This document shows positions 1 to 47,771 of a stretch of 64,000 nt of DNA, in pieces. Under the pieces are notes generated by a model, which saw nothing but the letters and a program-made list of their open reading frames with translations, did not search any database and was not told the DNA's origin. Each line of letters opens with the position of its first letter. Position 1 is the first letter of the stretch. Both the position numbers and the translations under genes were made by a program. Origin of the DNA: Xestospongia bergquistia (taxonomy: Eukaryota; Porifera; Demospongiae; Haplosclerida; Petrosiidae); assembly GCA_963965975.1 (NCBI GenBank), contig OZ014415.1, positions 6,887,001-6,951,000 on the forward strand. The letters run 5' to 3'.

Positions 1-132
1 CTGATATATAGGGCAATTGTGGTTCTTATGTTTTGTATTTGCGCATGCTCAGTTAGCCAGCGACATTGATGTTTTATACACATAATAAAGAAATTGTTCT
101 AGTCAAGGAGAGACAAAGCAGTAGTGTAACAG

Positions 133-400
133 TGTGCTACTTTTAATAGTCAGTGCAACAATCAATATGACAGAGAACAAAGAAGTACAATGTTTAATCT
201 GTATAATCCTATTAAATACTCTCAATACTGCTTCAGGGAAATACAAAGTACCAGTTGGGACCAAGTTTGAGCTAGATTCATCTGCTAAAGGTACAGATTT
301 ATACATATTGCATTGCAGTTTGTAGCTGCATGTTAATCTTTGTTTAGTTATTGTTATGAATCTAATCTGTTACTTCAAATGTATAATCTTATTAAATACT
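133..400 (+). pseudogene. Orphan first exons of a family B gene
   Basis: An ATG at 166 opens an exon ending at a GT donor near 293 and containing the family hallmark VPVGTKFEL. It is followed by a truncated second exon (about 351-382) encoding NLICYFKC, after which similarity stops and the 3' flank of the neighbouring minus-strand gene begins. The stretch is nearly identical to the first exons of the pseudogene at 3727-5665, but here the ATG is intact. No further exons follow, so this is a 5' fragment left by a duplication breakpoint. Confidence 0.6.
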
Positions 401-414
401 CTCGATGCTGCTAG

Positions 415-790
415 TTAGTACAGTTTGTGTACTTTAACAAATGACTATACTCAATGAGGTGTGTCTAAAGTATTCATTCCATAGTAACAACGTAACAGCC
501 TTCATATTCAGGATTGTAGTTATTACTTTATAATACAATTATAATTGTTAACATGACAAATATGAATAATGTGATAGAATTGTTAGTGAATTAAGATCAC
601 AGCACTCTCTATTGTGTTATATTACTAATGCAATCACATATCAGTCTGTCAACAAGTTAGTGTATTGAGAAATAACAGCAGACTCTTTTCTAACATGCCT
701 TATTATAAATAGAACTATAGATATGATGATACATACTGTGAGGAAAGTACTGAACAAAAGAATAATAACCTAATAGTGTTATTTAAATAA
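415..790. repeat. Conserved 3' flank block of DED-TM genes
   Basis: A non-coding stretch with the signature TTTGTGTACTTT, then ACAAATGACTA and GTGTCTAAAGT. The same block recurs at about 9595-9960, 14925-15150, 18470-18870 and 21885-22105, always just downstream of a DED-TM gene or its remains. It is useful as a marker of duplicated units. Confidence 0.65.
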
Positions 791-794
791 ATAG

Positions 795-3183
795 CTAGTC
801 ATCAGTTAACAAGTCAGTATATTGAGAAATAACAAGTGACTCCTTTCTTACATGCCAGATTATATATACAACTAGTGCTAAGATAATACATACTGTAATA
901 AAACCAGTGGCAGTACTAAATGACAGACAAGTGACACTACCAACATTCCAGTTGGCAAGAATGACATCCACTGTAATATTTTTTTGATTATTGCTATTAG
1001 ATTGAGCAAGTAGACAGATATAGTCCTGTGCAAAGCTTAAACTTGAATTTGCAATTGCTATAGTACAGGAGGGTATGTCAACATTCAGGAGACATTTTTC
1101 TGGAGTCAGATCAGAGACTTGAAATTCTTCTAATTGTCCAGTTATTGTTATATTAACATATAAACCTTTTGTTAACCCTACAGCAAAGTAGTAGAAGGTA
1201 TTTGGATGGAGATGAAAGTTTACAATATGGGTTTGAAGTGTGGAATTAACTGAATTAAGAGTACAATCTGGACTAGAAATAGGACCATTGTAATAATCAA
1301 AAGGATGTTGTAGATAGCGATGATATTTCTGATAGTCATTAAACATATGTAGTTCAAGAGGACAAATAGTAAAATTAACATCAGCTCTGAAACTGAATGT
1401 ATAAGTAAGTGTACTATTACCAGCTGAATAGATTGGGGCATCAACTAAATAGTTCATATGTTTGCGATAAGTAACACCATTTGGATTATATCTCTCCTTT
1501 CGTCCTTTCAATTGTTTTGGTGTAAAGTGAAGGTTATTCACATTTGTCTTATAAAAGGTAACTGTCACAGGATCATTACCATATCCTTCTGTGTTACTGA
1601 TAATGACCTTTTTTATCCAAAAAGAATTATAACAGTTAGGTTCAATAATTACCGATGTATTACTTCCTATGTTGTGAACTGAATGTAAAGAAATATCTTT
1701 CAAACCAATGTAAAAGATTCCAAAAGTACTAATAGAAATGATTGTTAGAATCAGTGGTAAGACTACTAATAGTACAGAACAAATGGTACATTTCACTGTA
1801 CAGAAATAACCTACAATATGACGGAGCATTATGCATCAAAATTCTGACAATTCACAGACTTACATCTTTGACGTTTTGCCATAACTTCTAGAATCAATCT
1901 GTCAATTCTAGCACCATCAATATCAACAACATCATCTTCGTAATCAGCACCTATTTCATAAACAAATAGTAAATATGAACTGAGATCACAGAATTACATT
2001 TGACTAATAATACATATAAGACATGTGTGGTTGTACTATACTGAATAGATATAATGAAGACATTATGTGGCTGTATGAACAGGACATAACTAATTTCATC
2101 ACAATGTAGTACCATCGTTAAAGAGATTGGTTAACATTGTTTTGTGTTGCCTATGTTGCATACTTACAATGTATTAACAACATTATATGATTGCTTAACA
2201 AATGACTTTTTAAAAATAGTGTGTGTGGTATGGAGAGCTATACTATTATAATATGATAGTGACATGCAGGCCTATTAAATATGCAACATCAATTAAAATT
2301 TTTCACCTAACTAATGAGATGATAAATAGAATTTCCATAGCTCTGACAATTAACTACATGCCAGACAAATTTTAACCAACATTTATATAATGAAACAGTA
2401 TAATATTTATTACTTTTTAATGTGTTATCATGTATTACGTGTAAAGTGAACAATCATTAGTTAATTAAAACGATCAGTCTAGTTTAGTGGAATAGTGCAG
2501 CAATATATAAACTCACCTAATTCTGGTAACTGTAATTCACTCCAATCTGGTATTGTGAGACTTTGGCGAGTGCAAAATTCTCGAAGATATTCAACTTGTA
2601 AAGAACAACCAGCTGCTTCAAGCGAAGCAAACATATAAATCAGATGATTTGGAATGAGAACATTCTTATCTTGTAACAGTTCTAAAAGATGTGAGCGTGA
2701 CAAGATTCGAGATGTATGATACTCAGGAAGAAATGTGAGTCGAGCTAGTTCTTTAAATTTTTGATAACTTTTTTCTGAGATATCTCCCATTATAAATGAC
2801 AAAGTCAAAGTTAAGTCCATAACCAGATTTTTCTCCAAATCAATCTTTATGTTAACAAATGGTAGCAAACCTTTTAAAAGTGGTTTAGGAAATCCAACAA
2901 GAGTAAGCATCTGATAGATCAGTGAGGGCGCATGTTGAGGTATCTTGTGTTCTATTAATTGATAGAGGTCAATAAATGAGTCAACATTCTCTAATTGTTG
3001 TCTTGGTATATCCAGGAGGAAACAAGCCAGTTTGAGAGAGTGTAATTGATGTTCACTAAGACCAGGTTCAATGTTGACAAGCTGAATTCTTAATGCTCTT
3101 TTTATGTCAGGATTTGATTGTGGAGATTTTATCTGATGCAACTGATTATGTTTGATCCATCTAGTAGAAGTCTGAGACGCCAT
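795..3183 (-). CDS. Tandem-DED two-pass membrane protein (DED-TM copy 1)
   Basis: Three exons: 3183-2517, 1950-1864 and 1810-795. Phases match and give 589 aa. Residues 1-222 carry two DED-like six-helix folds; helix-2 signatures are FIDLYQLIEHK in the first and HLLELLQDK in the second. A 29-residue acidic linker follows, then a Cys-rich juxtamembrane stretch (CTVKCTICS), a hydrophobic helix (about 263-285), a roughly 260-residue ectodomain with many N-x-S/T sites and conserved Cys, a second helix (about 545-568) and a tail ending YTDLLTDD. There is no signal peptide, so the DEDs should be cytosolic, with both termini inside. DEDs are homotypic adaptors of caspase-8/FADD-type signalling in animals; a receptor role is inferred. 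The start ATG is the first in the exon and precedes the conserved core. Confidence 0.8.
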
Positions 3184-3726: not shown

Positions 3727-5665
3727 GTGCTACTTTTAATAGTCAGTGCAACAATCAATACGGCAGAGAACAAAGAAGTGCAATGCTTAATCTGTATAAA
3801 TTCATTAAATACTGTCAATACTGCTTCAGGGAAATACAAAGTACCAGTTGGGACCAAGTTTGAGCTAGTTTCATCTGCTAAAGGTACAGATTTATACATA
3901 TTGCATTGCAGTTTGTAGCTGCATGCTAATCTTTGTTTAGTTATTGTTGTGAATCTAATCTGTTACTTCAAATGTGATGTTGAATCTGAACAATCTTCTC
4001 TTTTGATCGCTTTAAAAAAGGTAAATTCATATAAAGTACAGTTTATACTATAGTTCTTGAAGCCAGAGTTTTGCTCACAGAAAAAATGTAATGCATATAA
4101 CAATTATTACATAGGTTGTACAGCAATCAAGGTATGTTTTTTACCATATAAGGCACAGAATATATAGACATAGACTTTAAGCCTGATCACAAACTTTGCC
4201 ACATTTAAAAACAGTCTGATTGCTTTGAAATGGGGTGGCCATGTTCAAACTAAGCCTGACCAATGAGAAAAAGGTGATAATACAAAGTGTTAAACAATTA
4301 ATAGTCTCAGTCCCAGACCTACACACAAATCCAGACTTTGGCTTATAGGTCTGAGGCCAAGACTACTGCTAAACTGCCAAATTCTCACAAGTACTCAACA
4401 ATATGTATAAACTATTATATAGACTACATACGACTGATCAACTAAGGCAAAAAGTAATTGCAATGATTTATTGGAGGTTGTAATTCTATAGGCTTTCAAG
4501 GATGAACATGTTGAAGTAATTGTGTAGCAAGCTGATGTTTCAGATAACTTACCATATGGTAAAAAAACCTGTTGATATCAATATCAGTATTGTTGGTGAG
4601 AGTCAAGTAACATATCAAGATGTCTATGATGCTGTAAGTAAACATCTTGGTTCAAGCTACATGTGAGTATTGATAATAAAAAATGATCGTTTGTTAGAGT
4701 GTACGTTAATGTTTAAAAATTAAATATGTTTTTTTGACTTTTCTTCATTAACCTACGCAAAAGTCATATTAAAGATTTTATCATAGACGTTACAAATTTG
4801 GTTTTTTTAAATGGTCTTAAGGTTCCAAATGGTACTGTATTCCGAGCCTATAAACAAGGTCTATAATGGATAGAAACATTACCTACATATATTTTTAATA
4901 AAGGCAATGCCATGACCTTCATAACACAACAAGAAGCCACTTTTAATCCCGTATCTGATACCGGTGCCTGTGTCTACAGTCTAACTAAAGATGTAGATTT
5001 GACAGGTATGGCTTATGATAATTGTTAATATTACTAAAACCTCTTGTGCTAACCATGCAATTTGCCTGCATATATGATCAATCATCTTTATGAAACATTA
5101 AAATTACTCAAGACATGAGTTTTGATGCATTTTTCTAAATTTGTAAATACATAAAATTCTTTCTTCATACAATAGCATTTCCTGCTTAATATCTGCTTAA
5201 ATTCATTAGACTACATGTGTCTATGTTAAATATATTTATTTGACATTGATACATTTTGGATGCAGATAACATCAATAGACAAATTCAGCAGGTATGTGGA
5301 AGATGTCATGTTTATATTTATTATTGAAAGTATTTTTACAGTATCTACAAGAGTATCAGCCATTTAATTGTTATGTCAGTGTGTTTACATTAAAGTATGA
5401 AAAATGGCATCATAGTTATCCACTTAGTCCTACTCTACCTCTTTCTGTTGGGCTCAGTATCCTAATTCGTAATATTCCTAAAAACAATCAGGACATTGCT
5501 ATGTATTTACAAGAATACCTAGAAAATGATTATATGTAAGTTTCCTATGATTTATATAAAGGTTGTGTGTGTTAGTTCTAGTGTATATCAGTAATAAACA
5601 TTTCTTCAATATTATTGATCTCTATAAAAACTTATATATATCTTCCCTTTAGTGTTGAATTTTAA
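3727..5665 (+). pseudogene. Family B pseudogene
   Basis: Recognisable exons: about 3727-3892 (VPVGTKFEL), 3941-4020 (NLICYFKC), about 4496-4663, 4764-4858 (VPNGTVFRAYKQ), 4904-5005, 5266-5291, 5342-5524 (ending YLENDY) and 5653-5665 (stop). Lesions: the start ATG of the paralogue at 166 is ACG here; the third exon has an in-frame TAG, and a run of seven A shifts the frame before KPVDINISIVG; the sixth exon has lost its first two thirds, although the remaining 26 nt still splice in frame. The other exons keep phase, so decay is recent or some lesions are sequence errors. The function of the family is unknown. Confidence 0.65.
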
Positions 5666-7571: not shown

Positions 7572-9277
7572 ATGGGCAACAAGACTCCACGACCTGTTGG
7601 ACCATCTGGAATTGAAGGTGTTTCTGATAGTGTTGATGTTGAACTTAAAGGAAGGTTGGTTTGTGCTGAGGTAGTACTTAGTTATGATCAAAATAATGAT
7701 AACTATATTGTGCCATTTGGAACAAAGTTCGTTCTAAAAACTGGTAAATGTAACATGTAGTACACAATGATGTTATTACCTCTGTTTATAGAGAATGATT
7801 GGGAACCTACTGCTAGCACAAAACTCATCACTGTCTATATGACCTGTTCCTTTACTGATGATATGAACAAAGTGGATTCAGACAAGATACGTCATGTTCT
7901 AGAAGAGGTAAATTGTAATTTATTATTAGTTACTGATAACTTGATATTCCACAGAAATTTCAATCGGAAGGACAACTTCATATAAATGTTTATGTAATTG
8001 GTACTACTGAGAATGAAGCAGGAAAGCCATTGAGTTCACTCAACATGATTAGACTTGATATTAATGTACATGGAATAAACATAACACATGAAGAAATACT
8101 TCAAGCTATAGCCACTTACCTTGGACCAGAATACAAGTGAATTGCTATAATAAGTATATGCTATAACATCATGTAATATACCAGACTAGATATGATAGAA
8201 CCAACCCACGATCATAATTGCATAAAAGGCATTTTGATAAGTAAAGAGGTAACTCTTACCTCAAATGGAATTGATTATGTAGTCCCTGAAGGAACTGGTT
8301 TCATTCTATATCTGTCCGATAGTGAGTTCATATTGTATAATTTTTATGTATATATCGTACTATCTCTATAGATGATGATAGTCAGGAGAAACGTTGTCAA
8401 GTTTATGTTACAACAGAAGATGTTAAATTGAGTTATACAAATGTAGAAGATGTCCATATCTTTACAGCTAATGTTTCTCCCTTTATATTACAAAGAGGTA
8501 ATGGTTTAATTTAGTAAATATTTCAACTGGCATGCATACTTTATGTACAAACCTAATATCAGACTTATATAATTTATATAGTAACCACTTTGAGTAATTC
8601 TATACTGAGAGCACTACAACAGTAAATGTCTTCTCATTATAATGTGATAATTTAAAGTAAAAAGCATTAACTAACTTCATGTACATTTGTCTCTTCTAGA
8701 TGTGTTAGATATATATTTATATACATAGTAAACTTTTCTATTCAAGAAAATGCTATAAGTTTGCTGTACTACAGCTTCTGTAGGGTTACCTCAATCTTTA
8801 ATGTTTTATTTAAATATTGTTGTCAAACTAATAATAAGGAGAGTGTATATTCTAATTTTATAGAAACGAATGTCAATCCAATGATGATAGTGTATTTGAT
8901 ATGCTATTTTAGAGTAATAGATACCTCACTTTTCAACACTAATACCATTGCTACCTTTCTAGAACAGGTATATCATGAGATTAATAAATATATATCGTGA
9001 CATGTTTTTCCACATACTATAGACTTATCAGTCAAGGTCTCCACAACCAATTGCTTGTCATGTGTTTGAGGTAGAAATTATTCCTCAAACTGTATCACCT
9101 TCTGACTCAAATCTGATTGGATTTAATTGTCAAATATTGGGATTACCAATAACTATTGAAAATGTTTACGTGACCATGATTGAATATTTTGGTCCTAATT
9201 ATATGTAAGTAGTACATGTCCTTTCAATATCAAATAATTATAATGACCTTTTTTATAGAGTTATGCCACCACATTAA
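7572..9277 (+). CDS. Family B two-module protein (copy C)
   Basis: Eight exons: 7572-7743, 7792-7907, 7955-8136, 8185-8321, 8372-8497, 8864-8967, 9023-9204 and 9259-9277. They sum to 1038 nt (345 aa), with every junction in phase. Start MGNKTPRP. Module 1 (exons 1-3): VPFGTKFVL, then ITVYMTCSFTDD, then a unit ending ATYLGPEYK. Module 2 (exons 4-7): VPEGTGFILYL, a spacer exon, VYLICYFRV, and a unit ending EYFGPNY. The last exon adds VMPPH. There is no signal peptide or membrane helix, so it is probably cytosolic. I do not recognise the fold; it looks beta-rich with a helix at the end of each short exon. A start at an upstream non-ATG codon is unlikely, because paralogues share MGNKT/MDNKT. Confidence 0.8.
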
Positions 9278-10482: not shown

Positions 10483-10570
10483 AATAGTTCACCTAATTCT
10501 GTAACTGTAAGATATTTAATTTGGAGAGGACAACCAGCTGGTTGAAACCATGCAAGCATATAAATCAATT
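10483..10570 (-). pseudogene. DED exon fragment
   Basis: The reverse strand matches the last part of the DED exon of the DED-TM genes: the cytosine-rich donor region TTCACCTAATTCTG, then the segment for an ACMVSTS-like copy of the conserved M-F-x-W-x-E-A-x-G-C-P-L-Q stretch. The middle is deleted. It continues the remnant at about 9.6-10.0 kb. Confidence 0.5.
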
Positions 10571-10904: not shown

Positions 10905-12065
10905 CATCTTGGTTCAGGCTACACGTGAGTATTAATAATAAAAAATGATCATTTGTTAGATGTGTACATTAATGTTTAAAAATTAAAAATGTTTTTTTGA
11001 CTTTTCTTTGTTAGCCTATTCAAAAGTCATATTAAAGATTTTATCATAGACGTTACAAGTTTGGGTTTTTTAAATGGTCTTAAGGTTCCAAATGGTACTG
11101 TATTCCGAACCTATAAACAAGGTCTGTAATGGATAGAAACATTACCTACATATATTTTTTAATAAAGGCAGTACCATGACCTTCATAACGCAACAAGAAG
11201 CCACTTTTAATCCCATATCTGATACTGGTGCCTGTGTCTACAGTCTAACTAAAGATGTAGATTTGACAGGTATGACTTATGATATAATTGTTAATATTAC
11301 TAAGCCTCTTGTGCTAACCATGCAGTTTTTTTGCCTGCATATATATATATATATATATATGATCAATCATCTTTATGTAACATTAAAATTACTCAAGACA
11401 TGAGTGTTCATGCATTTTTCTAAATTTGTAAATACATAAATTCTTTCTTCATACAATAGCATTTCCTGCATGCTTAATATCTGCTTAAATTCATTAGACT
11501 ACATGTGTCTATGTTAAATATATTGATTTGACATTGATATATTTTGGTATCTTGTCTGTTCACAGATGTATACAACCAAGTCCATTGCTTTACGACTAAC
11601 TTGTTGTTTTGAAATTACTGATCACAATCATTGTAAACTTAATGCAGATAACATCAATAGACAAATTCAGCAGGTATGTGGAAGATGTCATCTTTATATT
11701 TCTTTTTGAAAGCATTTTACAGCATCTACAAGAGTATCAGCCGTTTAATTGTTATGTCAGTGTGTATACATTAAAGTATGAAAAATGGCATCATAGTTAT
11801 CCACCTAGTCCTACTCTACCTCTTTCTGTTGGGCTCAGTATCCTAATTCGTAATTTTCCTAAAAACAATCATGACATTGCTATGTATTTACAAGAATACC
11901 TAGAAAATGATTATATGTAAGTTTCCTATGATTTATATAAAGGTTGTGTGTGTTGTTTCTAGTGTATATCAGTAATAAACATTTCTTCAATATTATTGAC
12001 CTTTATAATAATTTATATATCTTCCTTTTAGTGTTGCATTTTAATGATGATGTCAATTTGGAACT
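10905..12065 (+). pseudogene. 5'-truncated family B pseudogene
   Basis: A near copy of the 3' half of the pseudogene at 3727-5665. It starts abruptly in the end of the third exon and continues with exons at about 11046-11122, about 11170-11271, 11566-11675 (TKSIALRLTCCFEITD, intact here but deleted in the other copy), about 11725-11917 (ending YLENDY) and a short last exon near 12032-12045 before TAA. The 11566 exon is out of phase with the exon before it. No start codon or first two exons are present. Confidence 0.6.
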
Positions 12066-12395: not shown

Positions 12396-14171
12396 ATGGG
12401 CAACAAGACTCCACGACCTGTTGGACCATCTGGAATTGAAGGTGTTTCTGATAGTGTTGATGTTGAACTTAAAGGAAGGTTGGTTTGTGTTGAGGTAGCT
12501 CTTAGTTGTGATCAGAATGTTGTGAAGTGTACTGTGCCAATTGGAACAAAGTTTATACTGAACACTGGTAAGTGTCACATGTATTACACAATGATGTTAT
12601 TACCTCTGTTTGTAGAGAATAATGATTGGGAATCTACTGCTAGCACAAAACTCATCACTGTCTATATGACCTGTTCCTTTACTGATGATACGAACAAAGT
12701 GGATTCAGACAAGATACGTCATGTTCTAGAAGAGGTAAATTGTAATTTATTATTAGTTACTGATAACTTGATATTGCACAGAAGTTTCAATCGGAAGGAC
12801 AACTTCATATAAATGTTTATGTAATTGATACTACTGAGAATGAAGCAGGAAAGCCATTGAGTTCACCCAAGATGATTACACTTGATATTAATGTACATGG
12901 AATAAATGTAACACATGAAGAAATATATCAAACTATAACCACTTACCTTGGACCAGAATACAAGTAAGTTGTCTTAATTAGTGTATACTATATAACATTA
13001 TGTATCCTACCAGTCTGAGACTAAATATGATAGAACCAACCCATGATTCTAATTGCACAAATTTAAAGGGCATTTTGATAACTAGTCAGGAGGTAACTCT
13101 TACTTCAAATGGATTTGATTATGTAGTCCCTGAAGGAACTGGTTTCATTTTGTATCTGTCTGATGGTGAGTTCTAACATTGAATTGTTAAAACGTGATAT
13201 GGCATTAGCAATTGTTATATACATTTTTTACTATTTCTATAGATGATGAAAGACAAGAGAAACATTGTCGAGTTTTTGCTACAAAAGAAGATGTTTACTT
13301 GAGTCATGCATATGTAGAGGATGTCCATATATTTACAGTAACTTATTCACCCTTTATTTTACTAGCAGGTAATATTTGTGCTTATTAAATATTTCAACTG
13401 GCCTTAGTGCTTTATATGCAAACCAAATATGTAGATTAATATAATTTATACAACAACCACTTTGAGTACTCAGTTGCTTCTATACTGAGAGTGTTACAAC
13501 AGTTCTAATCCTTCGAATGACTCTTAAGAGTGATATTTGAAAGTAAACAACATTAACTGACTTTTATCATAAATGTATTAATATATATTCAATGAATTTG
13601 TTTCTTCAAGATGTGCTAGTTGGTAATCTTTTCTATTCAACAAAATTAATTGGTATAAGTTTTGTGACACTGTAGGCTTATCTTTAGATCTAATATTTTA
13701 TTTAAGTGTAACATTAAGATTATAATAGTGGACAATATTTATTTTGTTTTTACAGAATTAAGACCTGGTCCATTCTTGACAGTGTATTTGATATGTTATT
13801 TTACAGTAACAGATATCTCACTTTTCAACATTAAGAAAATTGCTACCTTTCTAAAGCAGGTATATCATCAGATAAGAAACTATATATATTATTACACATT
13901 TTTCCACATACCATAGACTTATCAGTCAAGGTCTCGACAACCAATTGATTTTCATGTGTATGAGGTCGAATCTGTTACTCAAAAAGTCTCACCTTCTGAC
14001 TCAAAACTGATTGGACTCAATTGTCAAATAGTAGGATTACCACAAATACATGTCAATAGTGTTTATCGTAACATGAGGTATTATTTTGGTGATGATTATG
14101 TGTAAGTATGTGTCCTTTCAATATCAATTCATTATATTGACCTTTTTTATAGAGTTATGCCACCACATTGA
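12396..14171 (+). CDS. Family B two-module protein (copy D)
   Basis: Eight exons: 12396-12567, 12616-12734, 12782-12963, 13020-13165, 13243-13368, 13756-13859, 13917-14101 and 14153-14171. They total 1053 nt (350 aa), all in phase. Start MGNKTPRP is shared with the copy at 7572. Module 1 has VPIGTKFIL, ITVYMTCSFTDD and YLGPEYK; module 2 has VPEGTGFILYL, VYLICYFTV and YYFGDDYV, then VMPPH. No signal peptide or helix. Introns are short except the one before exon 6 (387 bp), which is also long in its paralogues. It converges with DED-TM copy 2 downstream. Function unknown. Confidence 0.8.
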
Positions 14172-29237: not shown

Positions 29238-29308
<71 letters not shown>

Positions 29309-30502: not shown

Positions 30503-32495
30503 CTAGTCATCATTTAACAAGTCACTGTATCGTGTAGCAACTGCAGACTCTTTTTTAATATGACAGACCACATAGAAGATTATAGCAATGATGATAGATA
30601 CTGTAATAAGACCAGTTGCAATACTAAATGAGAGACTACTAACACTGCCAATGTTCCAGATAGCAGGTGTTACATCCACAGTGACATTTCCTATATGTTT
30701 ATCATCAGAGTGGGCAAGAAGACAGATGTAGTCTAGTGTATAGCTTACACTTGAATGAGCTATTGGAATAGTGCAGGAGCTGATATCAACTGCAGAACTT
30801 AAAAGACATTTCTCTGGAGTCAGATTTGAGACTTGAAATTCCTTTAATTGTCCTGAAATTGTTATATTAACATATATACCTTTTGTTAACCCTACAGCAA
30901 AGTAGTAGAAGGTATTTGGATGGAGATGGAAGTTTATAATATGGGTTTGAAGTGTAGAATTCACTGAATTGAAGGTACAATTTTAACTAGTGATAGGACT
31001 ATTGATATTCGAATATTGATTAATAAAGTGATTAAATTCCTGATAGTTATTAAACATATGTAGTTCAAGAGGACAAATAGTAAAATTAACATCAGCTCTG
31101 GCACTGAAGGTATAAGTAATTGTACTATTACCAGCTGAATAGATAGGTACATTGCCTAAGAAATAGTTCATAGGTGAATGATAATTTACAGCATTTGGGT
31201 TGTAATTAAACATTCTTTTTCTTAGTCGTTTTGTTGTATAATGAAGAGTATCCTTCCTTGTTTTATGAAAGGTCACTGTCATTGGCTCATTTTGAATTCC
31301 ATATTCTTTAGCATTACTAATGATAACATTTTTAATCCAAAAGGGGTTGTAACAGTTGGGTTCTATAATCACTGATGTATTACCTCCAATATTGTGAATT
31401 GAGGTTAAAGAAATGTGTTGTAGACCATTATAAAAAACGACAAAACCACTAATAGAGAGGATTGTTATAACCAGTGGTATAACTACCAATAGTATAGAAC
31501 ATACTGTACATTTTACTGTACAGAAAAGACCTACAAAATGGTGGTATGAGCACAATATATATAAACTCTAATATTAATGTAATGTACTTACATTTTTGAT
31601 GTTTTCTCATGACTTCGAAGATAAATCTCTCAATTTTAGCACCATCGGTTTCAGCAATATCATCTTCAAAATTATCACCTAATTATAAAACAAACATCAA
31701 ACAGACCATATATGGAAGTTGAGAACTAATTCTTAACTTATAGGCATGGCATGTTACGTTTGAAAACAACAAGGAGTTTAATTATTTTGTTAGCAAACAA
31801 ATCTCTAAAAGGAAAATGCCTTTATATTAGTATGTAATTAGTAAATAACTTATTGATATATTTATACATATAAGCTCACCTAATTCTGGTAACAGTAATC
31901 CACTCCAATCAGGTATTGTAAGACTTTGGCGAGCACAAAATTCTCTAAGATATTCAACTTGTAGAGGACAATTAGCTTCTACAAGCCATGCAAACATATA
32001 AATCAGATGATTTGGAGTAAGAACATTCTTATCTTGTAACAGTTCTAAAAGATGTGAGCATGACAAGATTCGAGATGTATGATACTCAGGAAGAAATGTG
32101 AGTCGAGCTAGTTCCTTAAATTTTCGATATTTCATTTCTGAGATTTCTCCCAATATAAATGCTAGAGTCAAAGTTAAGTCTACTATTTGGTTTTCTTCCA
32201 AATGAATCTTCATGTTAACAAATGGTAGCAAACCTCTTAGAAGTGGTTTAGGAAATCCAACAAGAATAAGCATATGATAAATCAATGAGGGTGCATGTTG
32301 AGGCATCTTGTGTTCTATCAATTGATAGAGGTCAATAAATGTGTCAGCATTCTCTAGTTGTTGTCTTGGTATATCCAGGAGGAAGCAAGCCAGTTTGAGA
32401 GAGTGTAATTGGTGATCACTAAGACCAGGTTCAATGTTGACAAGCTGGATTCGTAATGCTCTTTTTATATCAGGATTTGACTGTGCAAATTCCAT
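30503..32495 (-). pseudogene. Tandem-DED two-pass membrane gene with one nonsense codon (DED-TM copy 4)
   Basis: Exons 32495-31880, 31678-31592 and 31530-30503 are in phase, and all splice sites look intact. Start MEFAQSNPDIK gives the standard 205-aa DED exon. DED1 and DED2, the linker, first helix, ectodomain (VPIYSAGNSTITYTFSARAD) and tail TRYSDLLNDD are all well preserved. A single TAA at 30983-30985 interrupts the ectodomain, where copy 1 has PD and copies 2 and 3 have KD before the C-T motif. The product would end in mid-ectodomain and lose the second helix and tail. The rest of the frame is undamaged, so this is a very recent null allele, a sequence error, or a functional truncated form. 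Confidence 0.75.
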
Positions 32496-34909: not shown

Positions 34910-36044
34910 TTATAAGATGGACTCAATCTATTATATATGACAGTTATGATATATTTGATTGTATCTGGGGAGTTTAGTGAATTTGAAGATGGTTCAATAT
35001 CAATGCCCCAAATGTTAATCTTTTTTTTCGTAAGAACTACTTTGTTAACTTCACTCGAGAAGACATATGTACGTGTGGGAGATACATTGATACTGAAAGA
35101 AATGCCAGTTTTAGAAATTGGATTGTTTTGATGATAACGCTAAATAAATAAAAGATGATGCTGTTAAATTAAACATTATCTTGTATCTTACTTTATATAT
35201 ATCATCAACAATTTCAGTTAAATAATCATCAAGTTCATCTTGGGGGTTAAAGTCACAAGTCAGTTTTATATTGACAGTATATTCTTCTGCAACAAACAAA
35301 AAAGTGAATTAATAACAATACTCATGATGTATAGTGAATTGAATATCTTCAATACTAGGTACATTATTTAACTAGCTACATTGCTACTGTGTTACAAACA
35401 GAATTAATACAAGTAAAATAAAGTCAGTAATGATAGTATATGACTACACACACACACGCGCACACACACACATACACAAGTATATACCTTGAACAATAAA
35501 ATCATTAATAGCTACTAGAATTGTTTCATCATCATTTTCACAACATTTAATGAGGCGAGGCTCATCATAATGATAGTGAACACAAGTGACAAAATTTATA
35601 ACTTCTTTACTTCCAGCACTCCCTATATTAGAATACAGATATATCATATATACAGTTACCTATGATATATTACCATGATGTGTTCTTCTGAGAACAAATT
35701 CAGTTTTGTTTGGGATGACGTAGTAATATTCATGACCGTGTTTATCAGCTGTACTTGGATCTCTTTTAGGAGAAAGGTTTAGTGACATCCTACTGGACAA
35801 TCCTCCAACAAGGTTTTGTGGTTCATATAGAAGGCCATCTTCTGACAAAAGATGACATAAAGTAAATAAGATACATTATGTGCATTATACCAAGTAAACT
35901 GCTGCTAGGCTTATAGCATACAAGGTACTTACTTTTAACAATGAATTCTGTTCTTTGCGGAACGTAATAGTAACCTGGTTTATCATGAACTGGATGTAGT
36001 TCCACTGGGTTCTTGCTAATTAACTCACCTACAATAGTTGCCAT
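34910..36044 (-). CDS. Family B short-form protein (copy G)
   Basis: Exons 36044-35933, 35841-35674, 35622-35488, 35286-35192 and 35139-34910, in phase, about 246 aa plus a missing final exon. Start MATIVGELISK. Exon 1 has VPQRTEFIV; exon 2 has a second, related VIPNKTEFVL; exon 3 corresponds to the spacer exon of the long genes; exon 4 has VNIKLTCDFNP; exon 5 ends RLSPSYK. This is exon 1 plus module 2 of the long form; the second and third exons of module 1 are absent. The last donor (AA then GTGAGT) needs one more exon that I could not place securely. Head-to-head with DED-TM copy 5, 1.35 kb away. Confidence 0.7.
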
Positions 36045-37398: not shown

Positions 37399-39340
37399 AT
37401 GGAAGCAAAATCAGAGAGTAATCAAAGTCAAGAAAGGGTATTACGAGCACAGATAGTTAAGATTGATCCAGGTGTTAGTAATCATCAGCTCCACTCTCTC
37501 AAACTGGCATGTCGTCTTCTGGATATACCACAAGAGAATGCTCACTCATTTATTGACCTCTATGAACTAATAGAACACAAGATGACTCAACGTGCACCCT
37601 CGTTTGTTTATCAGATGCTTCTTCGTGTTGGGTTTCCAAAACACAGTTTGCGAGAACTACATCGATTTGTAACTGTTGAAGTTCATATTGAAGAAAACAT
37701 AATTTTAGATCTGGTATTAACTGTAGCATACTTATTAGGAAAAATGGACATTAAATGTTATGAACAGTTCAAGGAGATAGCTAGAAAGACGTTTCTACCA
37801 GAATATCATCAAACTCGCATCTTATCTCCTTGTCATCTTTTGGAATTATTATTAGATAAAGGTATTATCTCATTAGACATCTTAAACTACTTGTTTGCTT
37901 GGTTTGAAGCAGTTGGTTGTGAGAAATATCATGATCATCTCAGACAGTATTGTACACGACATGGTATACCAGAGCCAGACTGGGGTCATTTGAGAATACC
38001 ATTTAATCTAACATGTGAGTAGATACATCATTTTGTAGGCAGTTTATATAGCTATTGTTTGTTAACTAATGTTGGCATTTTACATTCACTATAACCACTA
38101 ATCACTAACCACTAAAATAATTACTTTTATTTAAACATTTTTAGATTGTTTTGCTGATGCTACACGTTTGAACACGGAAATGGAGGAGACTGTCAGTTTT
38201 AAAGGTGATGATAATAGTTTTATGTTGGTATCAGTAGGGAATATTCAAAATGGAAATGCTTTCCCAATTAAAGGTGAGCACTCTATATAACTTTAGTAGC
38301 CTTTAACATGCACTTTATATTACATTTCAGAAACCATATTTTGTACTCGGAAATGTACTGCATACTCTACTCTGCTGGTATTGTTGCCATTGATATTGAC
38401 AGTTATTTTGTTTATTGTGTTTAGTGTTATCTTTCATTTAAATGCTGCCAAGAAACCTGACCAAGTTGTGATATCAAATTCATCTTCTTTAGGTCATGCT
38501 GGGGCTAATTCAACAGTTTTTATTAAGCCAAACTGCTATGACTCTTTATCAACTGAAAAGGTCATCATACATTCCAATAGGTTCACGAATGCTCTGATTT
38601 ACAAAGGTCATCGTGACACACTCCAATATATGATTTATTCATTTGTTAAAAACGACCGCCTTAAGAATTATCAATCATTTCAGGATGACAGGTTTCCATT
38701 AAACTATATTATAGGTGATGCCCCCGTCTATACTGCTGGAAATGGTAGTCTCACATACGTTATCAGTGCAATGGTTAATGGCAACTTCTCTTTCATTTTT
38801 AAATTCTGTCTCTTTGACAACTTCAATGATTTCAGGACAATGATAAAAAGAGGACATATTGCTAACACATTGCAATGTCATCAAATCAATAAAACAGTTA
38901 ATCAGCAAGTATTTGACTTTTTTTTAAATGACACTGGATTCTACTATGTTGCAGCTACAGTATCAATCGAGAATGTCCTAATAAATGTCAGTGTTCATGG
39001 AAGCTTGACAATAGTAGATAACGATGGACTAGAACAACAAAATTGTACTTTAAGTGAAGACAATTTTAATTGTACCGTATCTATCCTTGAGCTAGACTCT
39101 AATGAACTAACCTGTGTATTTATTGACTCAAATATTCTATCAGAGGTCAATGTCACTCTTGATGTAACTACAAGGGACAAAGTTCCTGTTGCATCAAAGA
39201 ATCTAGATGGTCTCATTTTAATGTCCTTTGCTATTATGACCTTTTGTTGCAGTGTTTGTTTGTTCACTAACGTCGTAATATATGCATTTTGGCGATACAG
39301 GAAATTTAAACGAGAATCTGATCAATACAATGTATTATAA
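37399..39340 (+). CDS. Tandem-DED two-pass membrane protein (DED-TM copy 5)
   Basis: Exons 37399-38014, 38145-38273 and 38331-39340; 1755 nt, 584 aa. The first exon is again 616 nt. DED1 (about 13-90) has FIDLYELIEHK, DED2 (about 105-195) has HLLELLLDKGI. The linker exon is longer than in the minus-strand copies (43 residues). A helix lies at about 258-280; the ectodomain has APVYTAGNGSLTYVISAMV and several N-x-S/T sites; the second helix is near the end, and the tail is ESDQYNVL, a Y-x-x-L motif at the very C terminus. It lies on the opposite strand from copies 1-4 and is clearly more diverged. Divergent with the family B gene at 34910-36044. Confidence 0.8.
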
Positions 39341-40302: not shown

Positions 40303-41463
40303 TTGTAAGGTGGACTCAATTTTTTAGCTATGACAGTATCAATATAGTTGATTGTTTCTGGAGAGTTTAGTGAGCTTTCTTGTGGTTCAATATCAATGTT
40401 GCCAACATTAACACTGTTTCCAGGAATTATTTTGTTATCAACACTCGAGAAGACAAATAGACGCGTGGGAGGTACATTGATACAGAAAGAAATGCCAGTT
40501 TTACACACTGGATGGTTTTGATGGTAACGCTATATAATAAAAGATACGATGATGTTAAATTATACTACATTAATGAAGATTAAACATTATTTTGTATCTT
40601 ACATCATATATGTCATCAACAACTTTAGTTAAATGATCGAGTATATCCTCTGGGTTAAAATCACAAGTCAAATCTATCTTCACAGTATCTTGTTCTGCAA
40701 GAAAAAATATACCAGTCACAATACTCATGTATTGATGTATAATGAATTGAATATTATTAATACTAGGGACACTATTTTACTACCTATATTGCTACTGTGT
40801 TACATAAAGAGTTTAATAAAACCAAAATAAAGTCAGATATATGTAATGACATGTATATGATTATATATACACACACACAAAAGTATATACCTTGAACAAG
40901 AAAATCATTAATGGCTACTAGAGTTATTTCTTCATCATTTTCATCACTTTTAATGAGACGAGGCTCATCATAATGGTCGTGAACACGAGTGAAAACATTT
41001 ATAACTTCATTCCTTGCAGCAATCCCTATATAAGAATATAGACATATCACGTATGTTGTTACCTTAGTGTCATGATACACTTACCATGACCTGATCCTCT
41101 GAAAACAAATTCAGTATTATTTGGAATCTCGTAATATTCATGAGGATGTCCATCAGTTATACTTGGATTTATTTCAGGAGAAAGTGTTAGTGACATCTTA
41201 CTGGACAATCCTCCCAGAAGGCTTTTTTGTTCATGTAGAAGACCATCTTCTGAAAAAAAGAGGGCGAGAAGTAGATAAGATGTATTATTATTAGGATTAG
41301 CTATTATACTGAGTAAACTGCTGCTAGGCTTATAGGATACAAGATACTTACTTTTAACAATAAATTCTGTTCCTTGTGGAACATAATAGTAACCTGGTTG
41401 TTCATGAACAGGATGTAGTTCCACTGGTTTCTTGCTAATTAACTTGCCTACAATAGTCGCCAT
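40303..41463 (-). CDS. Family B short-form protein (copy H)
   Basis: Exons 41463-41352, 41249-41085, 41025-40891, 40694-40603 and 40529-40303, in phase, about 243 aa plus an unplaced last exon (phase 2 at the final donor). Start MATIVGKLISK. Hallmarks: VPQGTEFIV, EIPNNTEFVF, VKIDLTCDFNP, and an end at KLSPPYK. Exon sizes match copy G to within one or two codons. No membrane helix or signal peptide. The head-to-head partner on the plus side has decayed (fragment at 42150-42345). Confidence 0.7.
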
Positions 41464-43859
41464 TCGTTCAAGAAACTTTTCAATAAGGGTTCCTATGATT
41501 TCATCAATGGCCCTCAAGGGTCAAACAATTCAATATTATTGCTTGGTTATGCGATTACTCAGGCATACTGAAATTATATATAAACTGTGATAAGTGATCT
41601 ATGTAATGGCTGTATATTTAGCCAAACCAAAGGTACTCTCCATGTCTTCATTATAAAATTTTAAAAGCATCTTAGACTTTAAAATAATTATTAAGATATT
41701 TGAACTTAAAAATAATTATTGTTTTATAAAACTACAAACACCTCCATTAGCTTCAATTGAAAGAAATGGTACTCATATATATCAACAACACTATTAAAAA
41801 AATTATATAAGCAATAATGTAATATCACTAGAAATTCATCTAAGTTTCAGGGACTATTTCAGAGGTGGATTTTATAAGATGAGGTAGATTTATATAAATA
41901 TCAACTCCTAATAATTGACAACAATCTGACAAAAGAGAAGATTCAAGTAGTTGTTGGACAATGAGATTTTTTCTTTGAGAAGAAATCATCTTCAATATCA
42001 AGATCATCTCTATTATAGGTCAGATGTGTGATGAAGAGGGCATATATAGTGTTATTTATTTATAATAATCTAAGTGACATTACTTTATGGCAGATCAAAG
42101 TAAAACTCAAATGAGCTTATCTAGATCCTTGTTTTTCTTGATTTCAATATTCTAGGTTAACGTCACTCTTGATGTTTCTACAATGGACAATTTCCTCTTA
42201 CATTAAGGAATCTAGACAGTCTCATATTAATGTCCTTTGCTATTATGACCTTTTCTATCAGTATTTGTCATTTAAATAGTGTTATTATATATACATTTTG
42301 GTGATATAACTAACGAGATTCTGATCGATACAATATATTATAATTGTTATTGCATGTACATATTTCAAATTTCATTTCTGTTGAATATTTTTAATTTTAA
42401 ACAGGATATCACAGTTATTTTAAACGTCTAATTTGTTGTGATAATGAAATTGAATTGATTTTGAAGAAGATAAGACAAAAGGTCAAAAATATTTACTTTA
42501 TGTGTTTTTGATAAGTAATAATTGGTAGTTGTATATCATAATTTATATTCAAAATGCCATTACAACAAGTCTTATTTAATACTAAAGAATCACAAAATAT
42601 TTAACACTCAGAAAAAGAAAAAATATAATCTTTGTAGTGAATTAGCATATCAGGTGTGGAGACCCTATAATAATAAAATACACATTACACAGATGATAAC
42701 ATTATCTGAGTTTACATAAAATTTCATTATCAACAAGTGTTCTAGTTTCAATAAACACTTAGAATTTTGATAAACATGACTATTTATATAATAAATCTAA
42801 GAGGGAAGGAAGGTATTTAGGGTCAGAAGGATATATACAAACTTTCTTTTATACTTTTATCTATTTCTTATCTATCCATGTTTAATTAGCATTGATGCAC
42901 AAGGAATTGTTTTATTCAAATCTTTTGTCCAAATAATTATTAACAAGATGTTGCATCCTATTGACTTCTAAGTTCACCTTTTAATTTCATACTATGCACT
43001 AACTAATATAATATAAATATTAGGTAAATTGAATAATAATTCATAACACTAATACAATAGTCATTTATTATCTAGACTAAACTCTATTAAACATTTGTTA
43101 TATGAATGTAGCAGGGCCTAAAATATCTCACAAAAACTAGCAGCTGAGTTTAATGGTTATCATGTGATAAACACTTCATCATAACTTCAATCAACTCATA
43201 ATAACTCAACACCAAAATTAGTACATGTCCAGATTGTTGCCTTAAGATGTAAAACTTATGCTTTAACTTTATTTTCATCTTGGAATTATGTGAATATTTA
43301 CTTGATTTTCCAGGAAAACTTGTCAGAGACAAATGCTTTTTAGGGATGTGCTTTTTAAGAAAACAATTAACCATTTTGAAAAAACTCAAAGTATGGCTTC
43401 AAAGAGGGGTTTCCTTTGTGAAGTGTCAATCACACATCTGTTCAACTAAAAAAATAACGTACTACTAACTCAAACTAAGTAATTACTAGCCACAAAGTAA
43501 GAACTACTAGTTTTTTGGTCACTACATATACTAGCCCAAATTTTAGCCCAGTTCTATACTATGTCATGACAAATCTTCTTACTGGAACTTAATTGTTCAT
43601 ACCACACTATTGCACTTACTATTACTTACTTATAAGGTGAACTCAATTGATTACCTATGACAGTTTTGATATGTTTTGATAAGTCATTTTAGCAATAATA
43701 TATTGAATGGCTTCAATCTAGACTGAGACCTATATTACTGTAATAATATACTATATTAATGTAATGATATACTATGTCACAACAATGTACATACTGTATC
43801 AGTAATCTATAGGTTGAAACCAAAACAATGAAACTATATTATTACATACTAATACTCAC
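41464..43859. other. Long intergenic stretch with one DED-TM fragment
   Basis: Except for the fragment at 42150-42345 and the family B 3' flank copy at about 42500-43100, nothing is recognised. Frames at 43150-43468 on both strands have no support. Confidence 0.4.
42150..42345 (+). pseudogene. 3' end fragment of a DED-TM gene
   Basis: It matches 39150-39340, the last ectodomain strand, second helix and tail of DED-TM copy 5 (compare GTCACTCTTGATGT and TTTGCTATTATGACCTTTT). Small deletions break the frame, including the loss of bases before the tail. All upstream exons are missing. It marks a lost DED-TM gene head-to-head with the family B gene at 40303-41463. Confidence 0.65.
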
Positions 43860-45433
43860 TTATAATTTTGACTTCAATTGTTTAGCTATGATTGTTTTGA
43901 TATTTTTTCTTGTACGTTGGGAATCAAGTGAACTTGCAGATGGCTTAATATCAATGCCATCAACCTTAACAATCCTTTCAGGAATTACTTGTTTAGTGTC
44001 TCTTGAGAAGACAAATAGACGTGTGGGAGATACTTTGATATTGAAGGAAATGCCAGTTTTACAAATTGGATTGTTATGATGATAACGCTATATAAATAAA
44101 AGATATGATACTGTTACCAAGTTAATGATTAAACATCACACTGTAAAAAATGTTATTTTAACAATCAGTTTGTGGCTTTAATGGATTACTATGGAATTAC
44201 TATTAGAGTGCATGTGAGTTACTCACTGTACAATTTGTTGGTTTGGTATACTATTACAAACAACAAATTATGAACGAGTAATTAATATCATGTTTGAACA
44301 CCATTAAGTTCCATCTGTGTAAGCTATAAACTAGTTGTCAAAGTTATGGTAGTAGTAATTTTCACAATACATTATTAGCTTACACTATATATATCATCAA
44401 CGATTTCAGTTAGATCATCTAGTACATTTTCAGGATTAAAGTCACAAGTCAGATTTATTTTGATAGTATCTTCTTCTGTAAAAACAAAACTGAATTAGCA
44501 ATAATACTCATGTATCAGTCACAATACTCATGTATTGATGTATAATGTATTGAATATTATTAATACTAGGGACACTAATTTACTAGCTACATTGCTACTT
44601 TGTTACAAACAGAGTTTTAATAAAAGCCAAATAAAGTCAGTTATACCGTATAGGTGGTATATTTCGCTGGGATTTAATTTCGCGAATTTTGCAATAATTT
44701 ATATTCCTTAGAAAAATGGGTGTGATCTATCTTAATTTGTGTAATTTTTTTTTCGCAAATATGAATTTCAGGTAAAATCGCAAAAATTTATACCGGCAAA
44801 ATATACCACCTATAATGTATGTAATGATATGTACATCACTATACATAAATACACACCAGTATATACCTTGAACAAGAAAATCATTAATGGTTACTAGGAT
44901 TGTTTCTTCATCATTTTCACAACGTTTAATAAGATGAGGTTCACAATAATGGTTGCGAACACGAGTGATAAAATCTATCTCTTCATTATTTCCAACACTC
45001 CCTATATATAAATACAGATATACATGCAAACAGTTTCAATGTAATTCATGATACACTTACCATGATGTTTTCTTCTGAGAACAAATTCGGTGCTATTTGG
45101 GATCATATAATATTCATGAACATGACCATCAACTAAACTTGTATCTCTTTTAGGAGAAAGTCTTAGTGACATCTTACTGGACAATCCTCCTACAAGGCTT
45201 TGTCGTTCATGTGGAAGACCATTTTCTGGAAAAAAGACGAGAAGTAGATAAGATGTATTATCTGGATTAGCTATTATGCCGAGTAAACTGCTGCTAGGCT
45301 TATAGGATACAAGATACTTACTTTTAACAATAAATTCTGTTCCTTGTGGAACGTAATAGTAACCTGGTTGATCATGAACAGGATGCAGTTCCACTGGTTT
45401 CTTGCTAATTAACTCGCCTACAATAGTCGCCAT
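43860..45433 (-). CDS. Family B short-form protein (copy I)
   Basis: Exons 45433-45322, 45225-45061, 45001-44867, 44475-44384 and 44087-43860; 732 nt, 243 aa, in phase, ending at TAA. Start MATIVGELISK. Hallmarks: VPQGTEFIV, MIPNSTEFVL, IKINLTCDFNP, then a fifth exon in which the usual SPxYK end is replaced by KSKL-stop. Compared with copies G and H there is one extra base in this tail, so the stop lies exactly where the others splice to a further exon. Head-to-head with the DED-less membrane gene at 46419 (about 1 kb apart). Function unknown. Confidence 0.7.
44650..44813. repeat. MITE in an intron
   Basis: Terminal inverted repeats ATAGGTGGTATATTTCGC and GCAAAATATACCACCTAT (one mismatch) bound about 163 bp, flanked by TA. 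The interior has TTCGCGAATTTTGC and its rough complement. It lies within the intron at 44476-44866 of the family B gene at 43860-45433. Confidence 0.7.
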
Positions 45434-45669
45434 ATCTGTGTTCAAGACAACTTCTCAGTTAGGGTTCCTATGATTTTAGTCAACCTTTGATTATAAAAAG
45501 TATGGCTTGCGGTCAAAGATTAACTAGTTAGTGTTGTAGTGATATTACTCAGTCATCTGTTGAAATCATAAATAATCTGTGATCAGTAATTTATTGTATG
45601 TAGTGGGTATATATATAACCAAGCCAAGGGTGCTGCTCCATGTGCTTCTTTATTATACTTGCATTTCTT

Positions 45670-45711
45670 AAATCAATTCTTGTTTCATAGACATAAAACA
45701 AGAATTGATTT
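45670..45711. repeat. Perfect 16-bp inverted repeat
   Basis: AAATCAATTCTTGTTT (45670-45685) and its complement (45696-45711) with a 10-bp loop, in the divergent intergenic region between the family B gene at 43860-45433 and the membrane gene at 46419. No terminator or element type can be assigned. Confidence 0.6.
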
Positions 45712-46418
45712 AATGATATAGAGAGAGCTGACGTTTTCACTTAGCTCCAGACTGATGTATGTAATTCATTGGAGCTCTCACTTTTAATTAATGTTCCATC
45801 TTGTAATGTAAATAAGTTGTTCTCCTGCTTACACTATCTTTTGTCTAAGGGGTGCTGTTTTTATAAAAATTAAACTGGATCTCCTATATAGTTATAGAAG
45901 CTTTTACTTCAACCAAATACTAAATACTGAGTGTACAGTCTCATTTTCAACAGAATAAATTTGTGCCTTAGCATAAGATATATTTGACATTGATGTGACT
46001 GTAGCTCTATTGTTATAAAAATATTTCCACTGTTATGAGTTTAACAGTAATGTTTGTACTGTTTGCATTTTTTATCATTGTAATTATCATATTTAAATAA
46101 TATTTGTCCAACAGCATAGAGGACGATAACATGATTATAAAGTTAATTAATGTATTTTTGTAATTGTGTATGGATTTTTCTATTTGATATTATAAATTTA
46201 CTAAATAACTTTAATAAACAATAATATATAATTATAATAACCGTCTTATAATTTTAATAAAATTTATATAACGCATGCCATAACTTCATGATGTCATAAC
46301 ATGTATTGTATATATCACCTGATCCAGTCTACATGTGCTATGTGATGACTCAAAGTGTAATCAGAATTATTACTTCCATTGCTTTGCCTTGAATGTATCA
46401 GTGACTTTTCAGTAACCA

Positions 46419-47771
46419 ATGACTCTACGACTACTAGAAAGCAGACATTCAAATTCACACAGTTCAACCTTTAATTCAAATCAGGTAGACCTAAGTAATG
46501 TATCTCAAGTGAGAAGTTACTCTATCAATTTTCAAGATGATGAGCCTGATGGTGTATCTCCAATTAGTAAGACTCTAGACTAATGATATAAATGAGTTAT
46601 AAATTATCTTTTAGAGGATGAAATTGATGGAGTAGAATATCAATCTATCTCAAGTGAAAGAGAACCTGATTTAACAGGCTAGTATATAAACACTGTTACT
46701 TAAGTTGTTTTTTCTGTTATAGGATCTGGACGTGAAACTAGATGTAATAGATTACCTTGCCATGGAAAACCTTGTGCCCTAGTAGCATTACTTTTAACAA
46801 TTCTGTTGATAGTATTCTTTGTGCTGGCAGTAGGCATTTCTCTTGCTTTACATATTCGCTTTTCTACAGTTAGTTTACAACATCTTTCTCATCATTTTAC
46901 TCAAATAATTGGAGCCAATTCAACAGTACTTGTTGGACAAAAATGTTTCAATTCACATTGGACTAAAGAGGTCACTATCAGTAAACAATTTAATGATCCT
47001 GACATTCAGTTCTATAGAACAAGCTATGTACAATATATGCCACTTCTGTTACCAAACAAAACTTTGTATGTATACCATAAAAATTACGGAGAAAGAAAAT
47101 CTGCCAACTACATGTGTTGCAATAATCCAATCTACACTGCTAAGAGTGGTAGTATTACTTACATAATTAGTACTAGTTCAGATAATCAGTTTTCTAATTG
47201 CCCTCTCCAACTGTTTATATTTGATAATTTTACAACTTACAATGAGTTCCTCATTGACCCCAATTCAATTAGTGATAATAGTGGTATATATAATAAATCC
47301 AAATGTGTGATAGGTACAAATCAAGTCCTTCAGTTTTCATTACAAGGCAACAAATTTTATTATGCTGCTATGAATATAGTTAATAATTTTGACAATCATG
47401 TTAGCTTTTCGGTAGACGCTTTTGGAAGCTTGACACAAATTAATACTAATGACCTTCAACCCTTTAATTGCAGTCTGCAAAATTTGGACACCACTCCATG
47501 TACAATACCAATACCTGAGTCCACTTATACATCTTCACAATTGACTTGTATCTTAGCTTATTCTAGTAGTGAAAAACAATTCAATATCACAATTGATGTA
47601 GCTCTAGCTCTAACATCTCGGAATATTAACAGTATTACTCTAGCTGCTCTGTTGCTGTTTGTTGTGTTAACAATTTTATCTGTTTTAGGTGTAATAGTCC
47701 AAGTGACTATGATGGTTTTACAAAAGAGAAGAAAACAAACAAATGATTATTGTGAAATTGAAAATGCATAA
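46419..47771 (+). CDS. DED-less member of the DED-TM membrane family (copy 6)
   Basis: Exons 46419-46566, 46615-46677 and 46723-47771; 1260 nt, 419 aa. The first exon encodes a 49-residue Ser-rich, disordered N terminus (MTLRLLESRH) in place of the DEDs. Linker and membrane exons keep the phases of the family. The linker exon must use a GC donor (ACAG then GCTAGT), because the nearby GT would create TAG at the junction. First helix about 85-110. Ectodomain has NSTVLVGQKCFNSHWTKEV, NPIYTAKSGSITYIIS and CPLQLFIFDNF, with many N-x-S/T. The second helix is near the C terminus, and the tail NDYCEIENA carries Y-x-x-I. It could be a decoy or co-receptor lacking the signalling domain; that is inference. 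Confidence 0.75.

What the first reader, a model, noticed from the sequence alone, without database searches (positions are those of the whole stretch)
100..47771. Repeated head-to-head pairs of a DED membrane protein gene and an unrecognised modular gene
At least five surviving or recognisable loci show the same divergent arrangement: a DED-TM gene on one strand and a family B gene starting 0.5-2.2 kb away on the other (3183/3727, 17508/19724, 36044/37399, 45433/46419, plus 41463 with a lost partner). Both families switch strands together near 33-34 kb, so the pair, not the single gene, seems to be the duplicating unit. Conserved divergent pairing suggests shared promoters and joint function. 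A receptor-effector or receptor-inhibitor system with death-effector signalling is my inference; I know of no described system of this form.
Basis: partly seen in the sequence, partly recalled or inferred. Interest (0 to 1): 0.85.

Follow-up and report, generated by a model that had tools for sequence, protein, structure and literature searches.

The report
Sponge death-domain membrane receptor gene array
An array of duplicated genes in what looks like a sponge genome encodes cell-surface proteins carrying a paired cell-death signalling domain, alternating with fast-changing small genes, and the head-to-head 'pairs' look like a by-product of that alternation rather than evidence of shared switches.

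Summary
The genes are real: six membrane-protein genes (D1-D6) and eight family B genes alternate on opposite strands and flip together at 33-34 kb. But B1 lacks the start codon its paralogs use, D4 has an in-frame stop and D6 has no DED. The pairing argument is weak. Of 28 neighbour intervals, 10 are head-to-head and 10 tail-to-tail, with similar median gaps (1.09 and 1.18 kb). No head-to-head interval is conserved end to end (one is about half conserved), whereas two tail-to-tail intervals are conserved over 79% and 93%. D is a two-pass membrane protein with a cytosolic tandem DED. Its glycosylation-rich ectodomain belongs to a family of about 36 C5 loci, fragments counted, remotely like APD1-4. 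Relatives lie beside Death, ZU5 and caspase exons. The DED exon is homogenised: four-fold divergence between clades is 0.08-0.15, against 0.30-0.34 in the ectodomain exon. Family B evolves fast; left and right B types are only tentatively related. Most likely: a lineage-specific receptor family with a uniform death-fold signalling exon and diverging ectodomains; B's role is unassigned.

The parts
795..3183 (-). D1: tandem-DED exon (within 2479-3183), acidic linker exon, TM-ectodomain-TM exon (795-1802)
   Evidence: ORFs; splice context; Pfam DED 3.2e-5
134..382 (+). 5' fragment of an o-type B gene
   Evidence: tblastn
644..769 (-). fragment of a D membrane exon
3727..5536 (+). B1 (o-type); ATG of paralogs reads ACG at 3760-3762
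7572..9202 (+). B2 (n-type), no head-to-head D
10509..10568 (-). DED fragment
   Evidence: E 0.004
11037..11917 (+). 3' half of an o-type B gene
12396..14102 (+). B3 (n-type); tail-to-tail with D2
15151..17508 (-). D2: tandem DED + linker + TM-ectodomain-TM
19724..21349 (+). B4 (n-type), two modules, small introns
22106..24627 (-). D3: tandem DED + linker + TM-ectodomain-TM
28478..29869 (+). B5 (n-type, divergent, incompletely modelled)
30503..32495 (-). D4: tandem DED open, in-frame stop in membrane exon; no head-to-head B
34924..36044 (-). B6 (m-type)
37399..39340 (+). D5: divergent tandem DED + linker + TM-ectodomain-TM
40317..41463 (-). B7 (m-type)
42104..42340 (+). remnant of a D membrane exon with 5 stops (lost partner of B7)
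43863..45433 (-). B8 (m-type), five exons
46419..47771 (+). D6: membrane gene of the same family WITHOUT a DED

Best explanation
The array is a lineage-specific expansion of a death-fold membrane receptor family. D proteins have a cytosolic N-terminal tandem DED, then TM1, a ~250-residue glycosylation-rich extracellular domain remotely related to the APD1-4 ectodomain, TM2 and a short tail. Shown by sequence: architecture, tandem DED, membership of a larger TM-ectodomain-TM family on the same chromosome, homogenisation of the DED exon while the ectodomain exon diverged. Inferred: the ectodomain senses a ligand or a neighbouring cell, clustering brings the DEDs together, and these recruit or restrain a DED/caspase apparatus (DEDs that pass the Pfam cut-off lie beside a caspase-like QACRG fragment on C11). 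Because the RxDL motif is absent, a membrane-tethered decoy or inhibitor, FLIP-like, is about as likely as an activator. B genes are a separate fast-evolving family of repeated modules, interleaved with D by local duplication. They may be functional partners, but the arrangement does not show it.
For: DED: Pfam 2.2e-6 at best; both halves match seven sponge DEDs that pass the Pfam cut-off (hhalign P 1.6e-8 and 1.0e-6). Topology: two hydrophobic regions flank the region holding 6-10 sequons in 9 of 9 genes checked. Ectodomain family: hhalign D (9 rows) versus T (13 rows) P 8.8e-26; T versus three PF16041-type genes P 2.4e-7; D versus these P 1e-5 (each a single comparison). Genome-wide: D copies were found only at C5 6.83-6.935 Mb, with one further DED without TM on C3 (counts are lower bounds). 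Death-fold neighbours: Death exon 254 bp upstream of a T exon (2.1e-9, above cut-off); ZU5 (9.6e-3) and Death (8.2e-4), both below cut-off, downstream of another; caspase (1.4e-20) nearby. Homogenisation: all 11 between-clade pairs have lower four-fold divergence in the DED exon, p 0.00015-0.023; identity between D1 and D2 falls to about 0.45 just outside the DED exon on both sides.
Against: No expression, ligand or interaction data. DED scores lie below Pfam's curated cut-off in all four exons scanned, and searches of solved structures found nothing meaningful. D6 lacks a DED and several copies are broken (D4, D57 and D71 carry stops), so part of the array may be decaying. No D pair shows dN/dS above 1, so positive selection on the ectodomain is not shown.
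Confidence: 0.6

Rival explanations
1. D and B form a true bipartite system transcribed from shared bidirectional promoters: D receptor plus B effector or inhibitor.
For: 10 of 11 tabulated D loci face a B head; D clades go with B types (D1-like with o, D2/D3 with n, D5/D6 with m); 5 of 10 head gaps are under 1 kb; a 130-bp element recurs upstream of o-type B genes, in three of the four o-type head-to-head intervals with a D gene, and one head interval (D57/o59) is about half conserved in order with another (D71/o72).
Against: Tail-to-tail contacts equally common and close; the best-conserved two-gene intervals are tail-to-tail (0.79 and 0.93 against 0.72 partly out of order); the 130-bp element also lies before B copies without a D at their head; 3 of 6 o-type copies have their own TATA-like stretch; 9 of 19 B loci lack a head-to-head D.
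Confidence: 0.15
2. The array is mostly neutral tandem-duplication debris with concerted evolution, little of it functional.
For: Remnants, stops in D4, D57 and D71, missing B1 ATG; B dN/dS 0.37-1.26; dispersed repeats in flanks.
Against: DED exon dN/dS 0.20-0.44 in all 21 pairs, membrane exon 0.23-0.87 in all 36 (pairs not independent); long open frames in D1, D2, D3, D5, D6.
Confidence: 0.2
3. D proteins are membrane-tethered DED decoys that hold a death or immune pathway off, like a surface-bound FLIP. This is a sub-case of the best explanation.
For: Tandem DED without effector domain; RxDL not conserved in D, whereas several C11 DEDs show GRxDL-like residues (read by eye; motif recalled).
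Against: No functional data; activating DEDs can also diverge.
Confidence: 0.3

Closest known systems
FLIP / caspase-8 tandem DED proteins and FADD (recalled)
   Same: Two N-terminal DEDs in tandem
   Different: Fused to a two-pass membrane domain; no caspase or Death domain in the exons seen; RxDL not conserved
Oyster (Crassostrea virginica) proteins with a cysteine-rich ectodomain, TM helix, DED and TRADD-N (PMC8195603, passages seen)
   Same: Expanded membrane proteins with an intracellular DED
   Different: Different ectodomain and topology as described there; no TRADD-N detected in D by Pfam
APD1-4 E3 ligases (Pfam PF16040/PF16041)
   Same: TM, ectodomain, TM layout (recalled for APD1-4; shown for the C12 genes' frames); remote profile similarity
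   Different: No RING finger in the three D exons scanned; below curated cut-off
Amphimedon TRADD-N / Death-fold expansions (PMC8195603, passages and section 8)
   Same: Sponge death-fold gene expansion with variable partner domains
   Different: PF13820 search of this genome found nothing, but its control also found nothing, so this is undecided

Membership tests
DED (PF01335) | score above Pfam gathering cut-off (35.9 bits) | tested here: not met
   20.1-28.2 bits in the four exons scanned
DED (PF01335) | homology to sequences that do pass | tested here: met
   hhalign DED1 P 1.6e-8, DED2 P 1.0e-6 against seven C11 DEDs
DED (PF01335) | RxDL charge-triad motif (recalled) | tested here: not met
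   FPKP-like and CPLQ-like residues at that place, read by eye
APD1-4 E3 ligase | PF16041 middle domain above cut-off | tested here: not met
   no hit at E<=1 in three D exons; 16.1 of 25 bits in one relative
APD1-4 E3 ligase | profile similarity to PF16041-positive genes of this genome | tested here: met
   T vs A P 2.4e-7, D vs A P 1e-5; single comparisons, suggestive
APD1-4 E3 ligase | C-terminal RING finger (recalled) | tested here: not met
   about 19-25 residues after TM2; no RING in the Pfam scan of three D exons
bidirectional-promoter gene pair | heads within about 1 kb | tested here: inconclusive
   5 of 10 gaps under 1 kb, range 469-3747
bidirectional-promoter gene pair | conserved shared intergenic sequence | tested here: not met
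   9 of 45 head-interval pairs show any similarity, none end to end; best is about half in order
bidirectional-promoter gene pair | co-expression | not testable with these tools
   no RNA data
two-pass membrane receptor | two TM segments flanking N-glycosylation sequons | tested here: met
   9 of 9 genes, by hydropathy only

The most novel reading that the evidence does not exclude
The APD-like membrane family and a small divergent partner gene form an old bipartite recognition module in which the partner type changes with the receptor clade: P genes beside DED-less T receptors (6 of 9 P loci cleanly head-to-head), o/n-type B beside left D genes, m-type B beside right D genes. The receptor swaps its signalling exon among DED, Death, ZU5-Death and none, while the DED exon is kept uniform by conversion.
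Probability: 0.13. Interest if true: 0.8.

Novelty: new variant of a known kind. Interest (0 to 1): 0.5.

Why it matters
If D works as proposed, a sponge-like animal couples a surface domain of a different type from TNF receptors directly to a tandem death effector domain, so death-fold receptor signalling may have been assembled more than once in animals. A uniform signalling exon with diverging ectodomains is what one expects of a recognition repertoire, and it makes a clear experimental target. The negative result matters too: head-to-head pairing in an alternating tandem array is not by itself evidence of shared regulation.

Tried and rejected
Pfam and solved-structure searches gave nothing meaningful for family B (Pfam on two joined proteins; solved structures on one). 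TRADD-N as an identity for the small P genes: suggested by PMC8195603, not detected by Pfam in the three P proteins scanned; the PF13820 genome search rang nowhere, controls included, so it decides nothing. P as a relative of B: hhalign P 0.12-0.13, not supported. Recent inverted duplication as the cause of the strand flip: every listed repeat of 600 bases or more in the 154-kb self-comparison was on the plus strand, so not supported. Positive selection on the D ectodomain: no pair above 1. A bidirectional promoter element: the 130-bp element has its main copies upstream of o-type B genes, two of which have no D at their head. Literature: no paper on this gene family turned up in the listings; these searches cover open PMC text only.
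Full report
WHAT IS THERE. The window is C5:6,887,001-6,951,000 of a 146-Mb, 21-contig genome. Translated searches place six D genes and eight B genes plus fragments. Left of about 33 kb D genes lie on the minus strand and B genes on the plus strand; to the right it is reversed.

WIDER ARRAY. The array extends left to about 6.83 Mb. The DED exon of D2 gives 12 matches genome-wide, 11 on C5 (two of them pieces of one gene) and one on C3. Three of these DED matches contain stops, in D57 and in the two pieces of D71. The C3 copy has no membrane exon in the 10 kb fetched. B n-type was found in the array plus one isolated copy at C5:3.586 Mb without a D match in its 10 kb. m-type B was found only as the three window copies. 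All genome counts are lower bounds by the tool's own statement.

IS HEAD-TO-HEAD SPECIAL? I tabulated 11 D loci and 18 B loci between 6.845 and 6.935 Mb. Two D-like loci further left were not included; one of them faces a B fragment at 6.3 kb, the other faces a membrane-family gene. Of 28 neighbour intervals 10 are head-to-head (469-3747 bp, median 1090), 10 tail-to-tail (413-2530 bp, median 1178) and 8 same-strand. Strict alternation makes both contacts inevitable. The next question is which junction travels with duplications. Comparing intervals pairwise, 9 of 45 head pairs and 10 of 45 tail pairs show any similarity. For tail intervals, B3/D2 versus B4/D3 is covered over 0.79, part of a block of about 5.2 kb. 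D5/B7 versus TM remnant/B8 is covered over 0.93, and o38/D44 versus f67/D71 over 0.54. For head intervals, the best is D57/o59 versus D71/o72 at 0.72, with about half in order and the rest repeated pieces; the next that joins two D-B gene pairs is D2/B4 versus D3/B5 at 0.25, including 158 bp at 91% next to the D start. Against my reading: the D57/o59 result is real partial conservation, D clade and B type do go together across the array, and a 130-bp element recurs upstream of o-type B genes (main copies in the D57/o59, D71/o72 and D1/B1 intervals, and before o60 and the fragment at window 134). Because the last two have no D at their head, I read the element as belonging to B. Four D1-like genes are 89-94% identical in DNA over the aligned gene body including introns, while most of their flanks on both sides do not align in register, so they seem to have spread largely as single genes.

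WHAT D IS. Exon 1 is a tandem DED: Pfam E 2.2e-6 to 7.9e-4 in four exons, all below cut-off, but both halves match seven C11 DEDs that pass it, at P 1.6e-8 and 1.0e-6. The two halves do not match each other (P 0.29). The membrane exon has two hydrophobic regions around 6-10 sequons in 9 of 9 genes. By profile it belongs with DED-less relatives at C5 6.809-6.823 and 7.485-7.675 Mb (P 8.8e-26); the union gives about 36 loci, fragments counted, all on C5. These relatives in turn resemble three genes on C12 that pass PF16041 APD1-4_M, one of them only with its neighbours in the frame. One relative scores PF16041 at E 0.013, below cut-off.

OTHER DEATH-FOLD EXONS. Relatives sit with other death-fold exons: a Death exon 254 bp upstream of a T exon (2.1e-9), ZU5 (9.6e-3) and Death (8.2e-4) downstream of another, a further Death exon (2.6e-4) and a caspase gene (1.4e-20) nearby. 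The ZU5 and the last two Death matches are below Pfam's cut-off. Splicing to the membrane exon is inferred from strand, spacing and two junctions viewed; no transcript was seen.

DED EXON HOMOGENISATION. At four-fold sites the DED exon differs by 0.07-0.15 in all 15 pairs of six left D genes, whatever their clade. The membrane exon differs by 0.02-0.09 within clades (4 pairs) and 0.30-0.34 between clades (11 pairs). Fisher p is 0.00015-0.023 for the 11; the pairs are not independent. D71 was dropped because its DED exon is broken, D5 because it is much more diverged, D6 because it lacks a DED; D57 and D4, which carry a stop, were kept with the stop codon ignored. Between D1 and D2, identity drops from 0.82-0.94 in the DED exon to about 0.45 in intron 1 and 0.46-0.52 upstream. 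Gene conversion or exon exchange fits; purifying selection on the protein does not explain low synonymous change.

WHAT B IS. Left n- and o-types are related (P 1.4e-5); the right m-type is only weakly similar (P 0.003-0.05), though a GTxF-motif exon, an LTCxF-like exon and a last exon come in the same order and intron phases look alike by eye. B evolves fast: dN/dS 0.37-1.26 over 19 pairs, 17 below 1; the two above involve a copy with stops. No family matched. A beta-alpha-beta-beta-alpha-beta pattern is my reading of the sequence, untested.

MECHANISM. Inferred: extracellular contact clusters D; the tandem DEDs nucleate or block a DED/caspase assembly. Candidate partners are the C11 DED genes, one beside a QACRG caspase-like fragment (motif recalled). 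B could be a regulator, but position does not show it.

LITERATURE. PMC8195603: abstract and passages and section 8; it reports TRADD-N expansions in the sponge Amphimedon and oyster membrane DED proteins. PMC12909245: three passages; its table lists 7 DED proteins in the sponge Dysidea avara. All other papers were seen only as search listings.

VERDICT. Real array, corrected anatomy, pairing claim weak, receptor reading plausible. Interest 0.5.

Noticed in passing
L009, L010, L019, L020, L025, L026 (C5 6.807-6.824 and 7.484-7.524 Mb): Small P genes lie beside DED-less relatives of D; of 9 P loci (one a fragment) 6 are cleanly head-to-head with a membrane gene, 1 across a membrane-gene fragment, 1 on the same strand, 1 with unfetched neighbour. 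Several are recent copies of each other.
   Followed up: partly
L028:4573-7806 (C5 7.67 Mb): A relative of D seems to continue into ZU5-like and Death-like exons, an UNC5-like tail (recalled) on a two-pass membrane protein.
   Followed up: partly
L025:8221-9000: Caspase-domain gene (E 1.4e-20) inside the membrane-family cluster.
   Followed up: no
L017:5338-5994 (C3): Tandem DED gene of the D type without a membrane exon in the fetched 10 kb.
   Followed up: partly
L003:1030-2511 and 3-371 (C11): Open frame holding four DED matches next to a QACRG caspase-like fragment.
   Followed up: no
C5 (154-kb stretch): window 3415-3541 and five other main sites to the left: A 130-bp element recurs upstream of o-type B genes.
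   Followed up: partly
window 53000-61724: Repeated kelch and protein-kinase genes in tandem (Pfam Pkinase 2.3e-31, Kelch 2.8e-14; repeats).
   Followed up: no
window 33734-34054: 94-bp minisatellite near the strand switch; possible old breakpoint.
   Followed up: no
L030 (C12 16-26 kb): Three PF16041-type membrane genes around a long ankyrin-repeat-like gene (ankyrin read by eye).
   Followed up: partly
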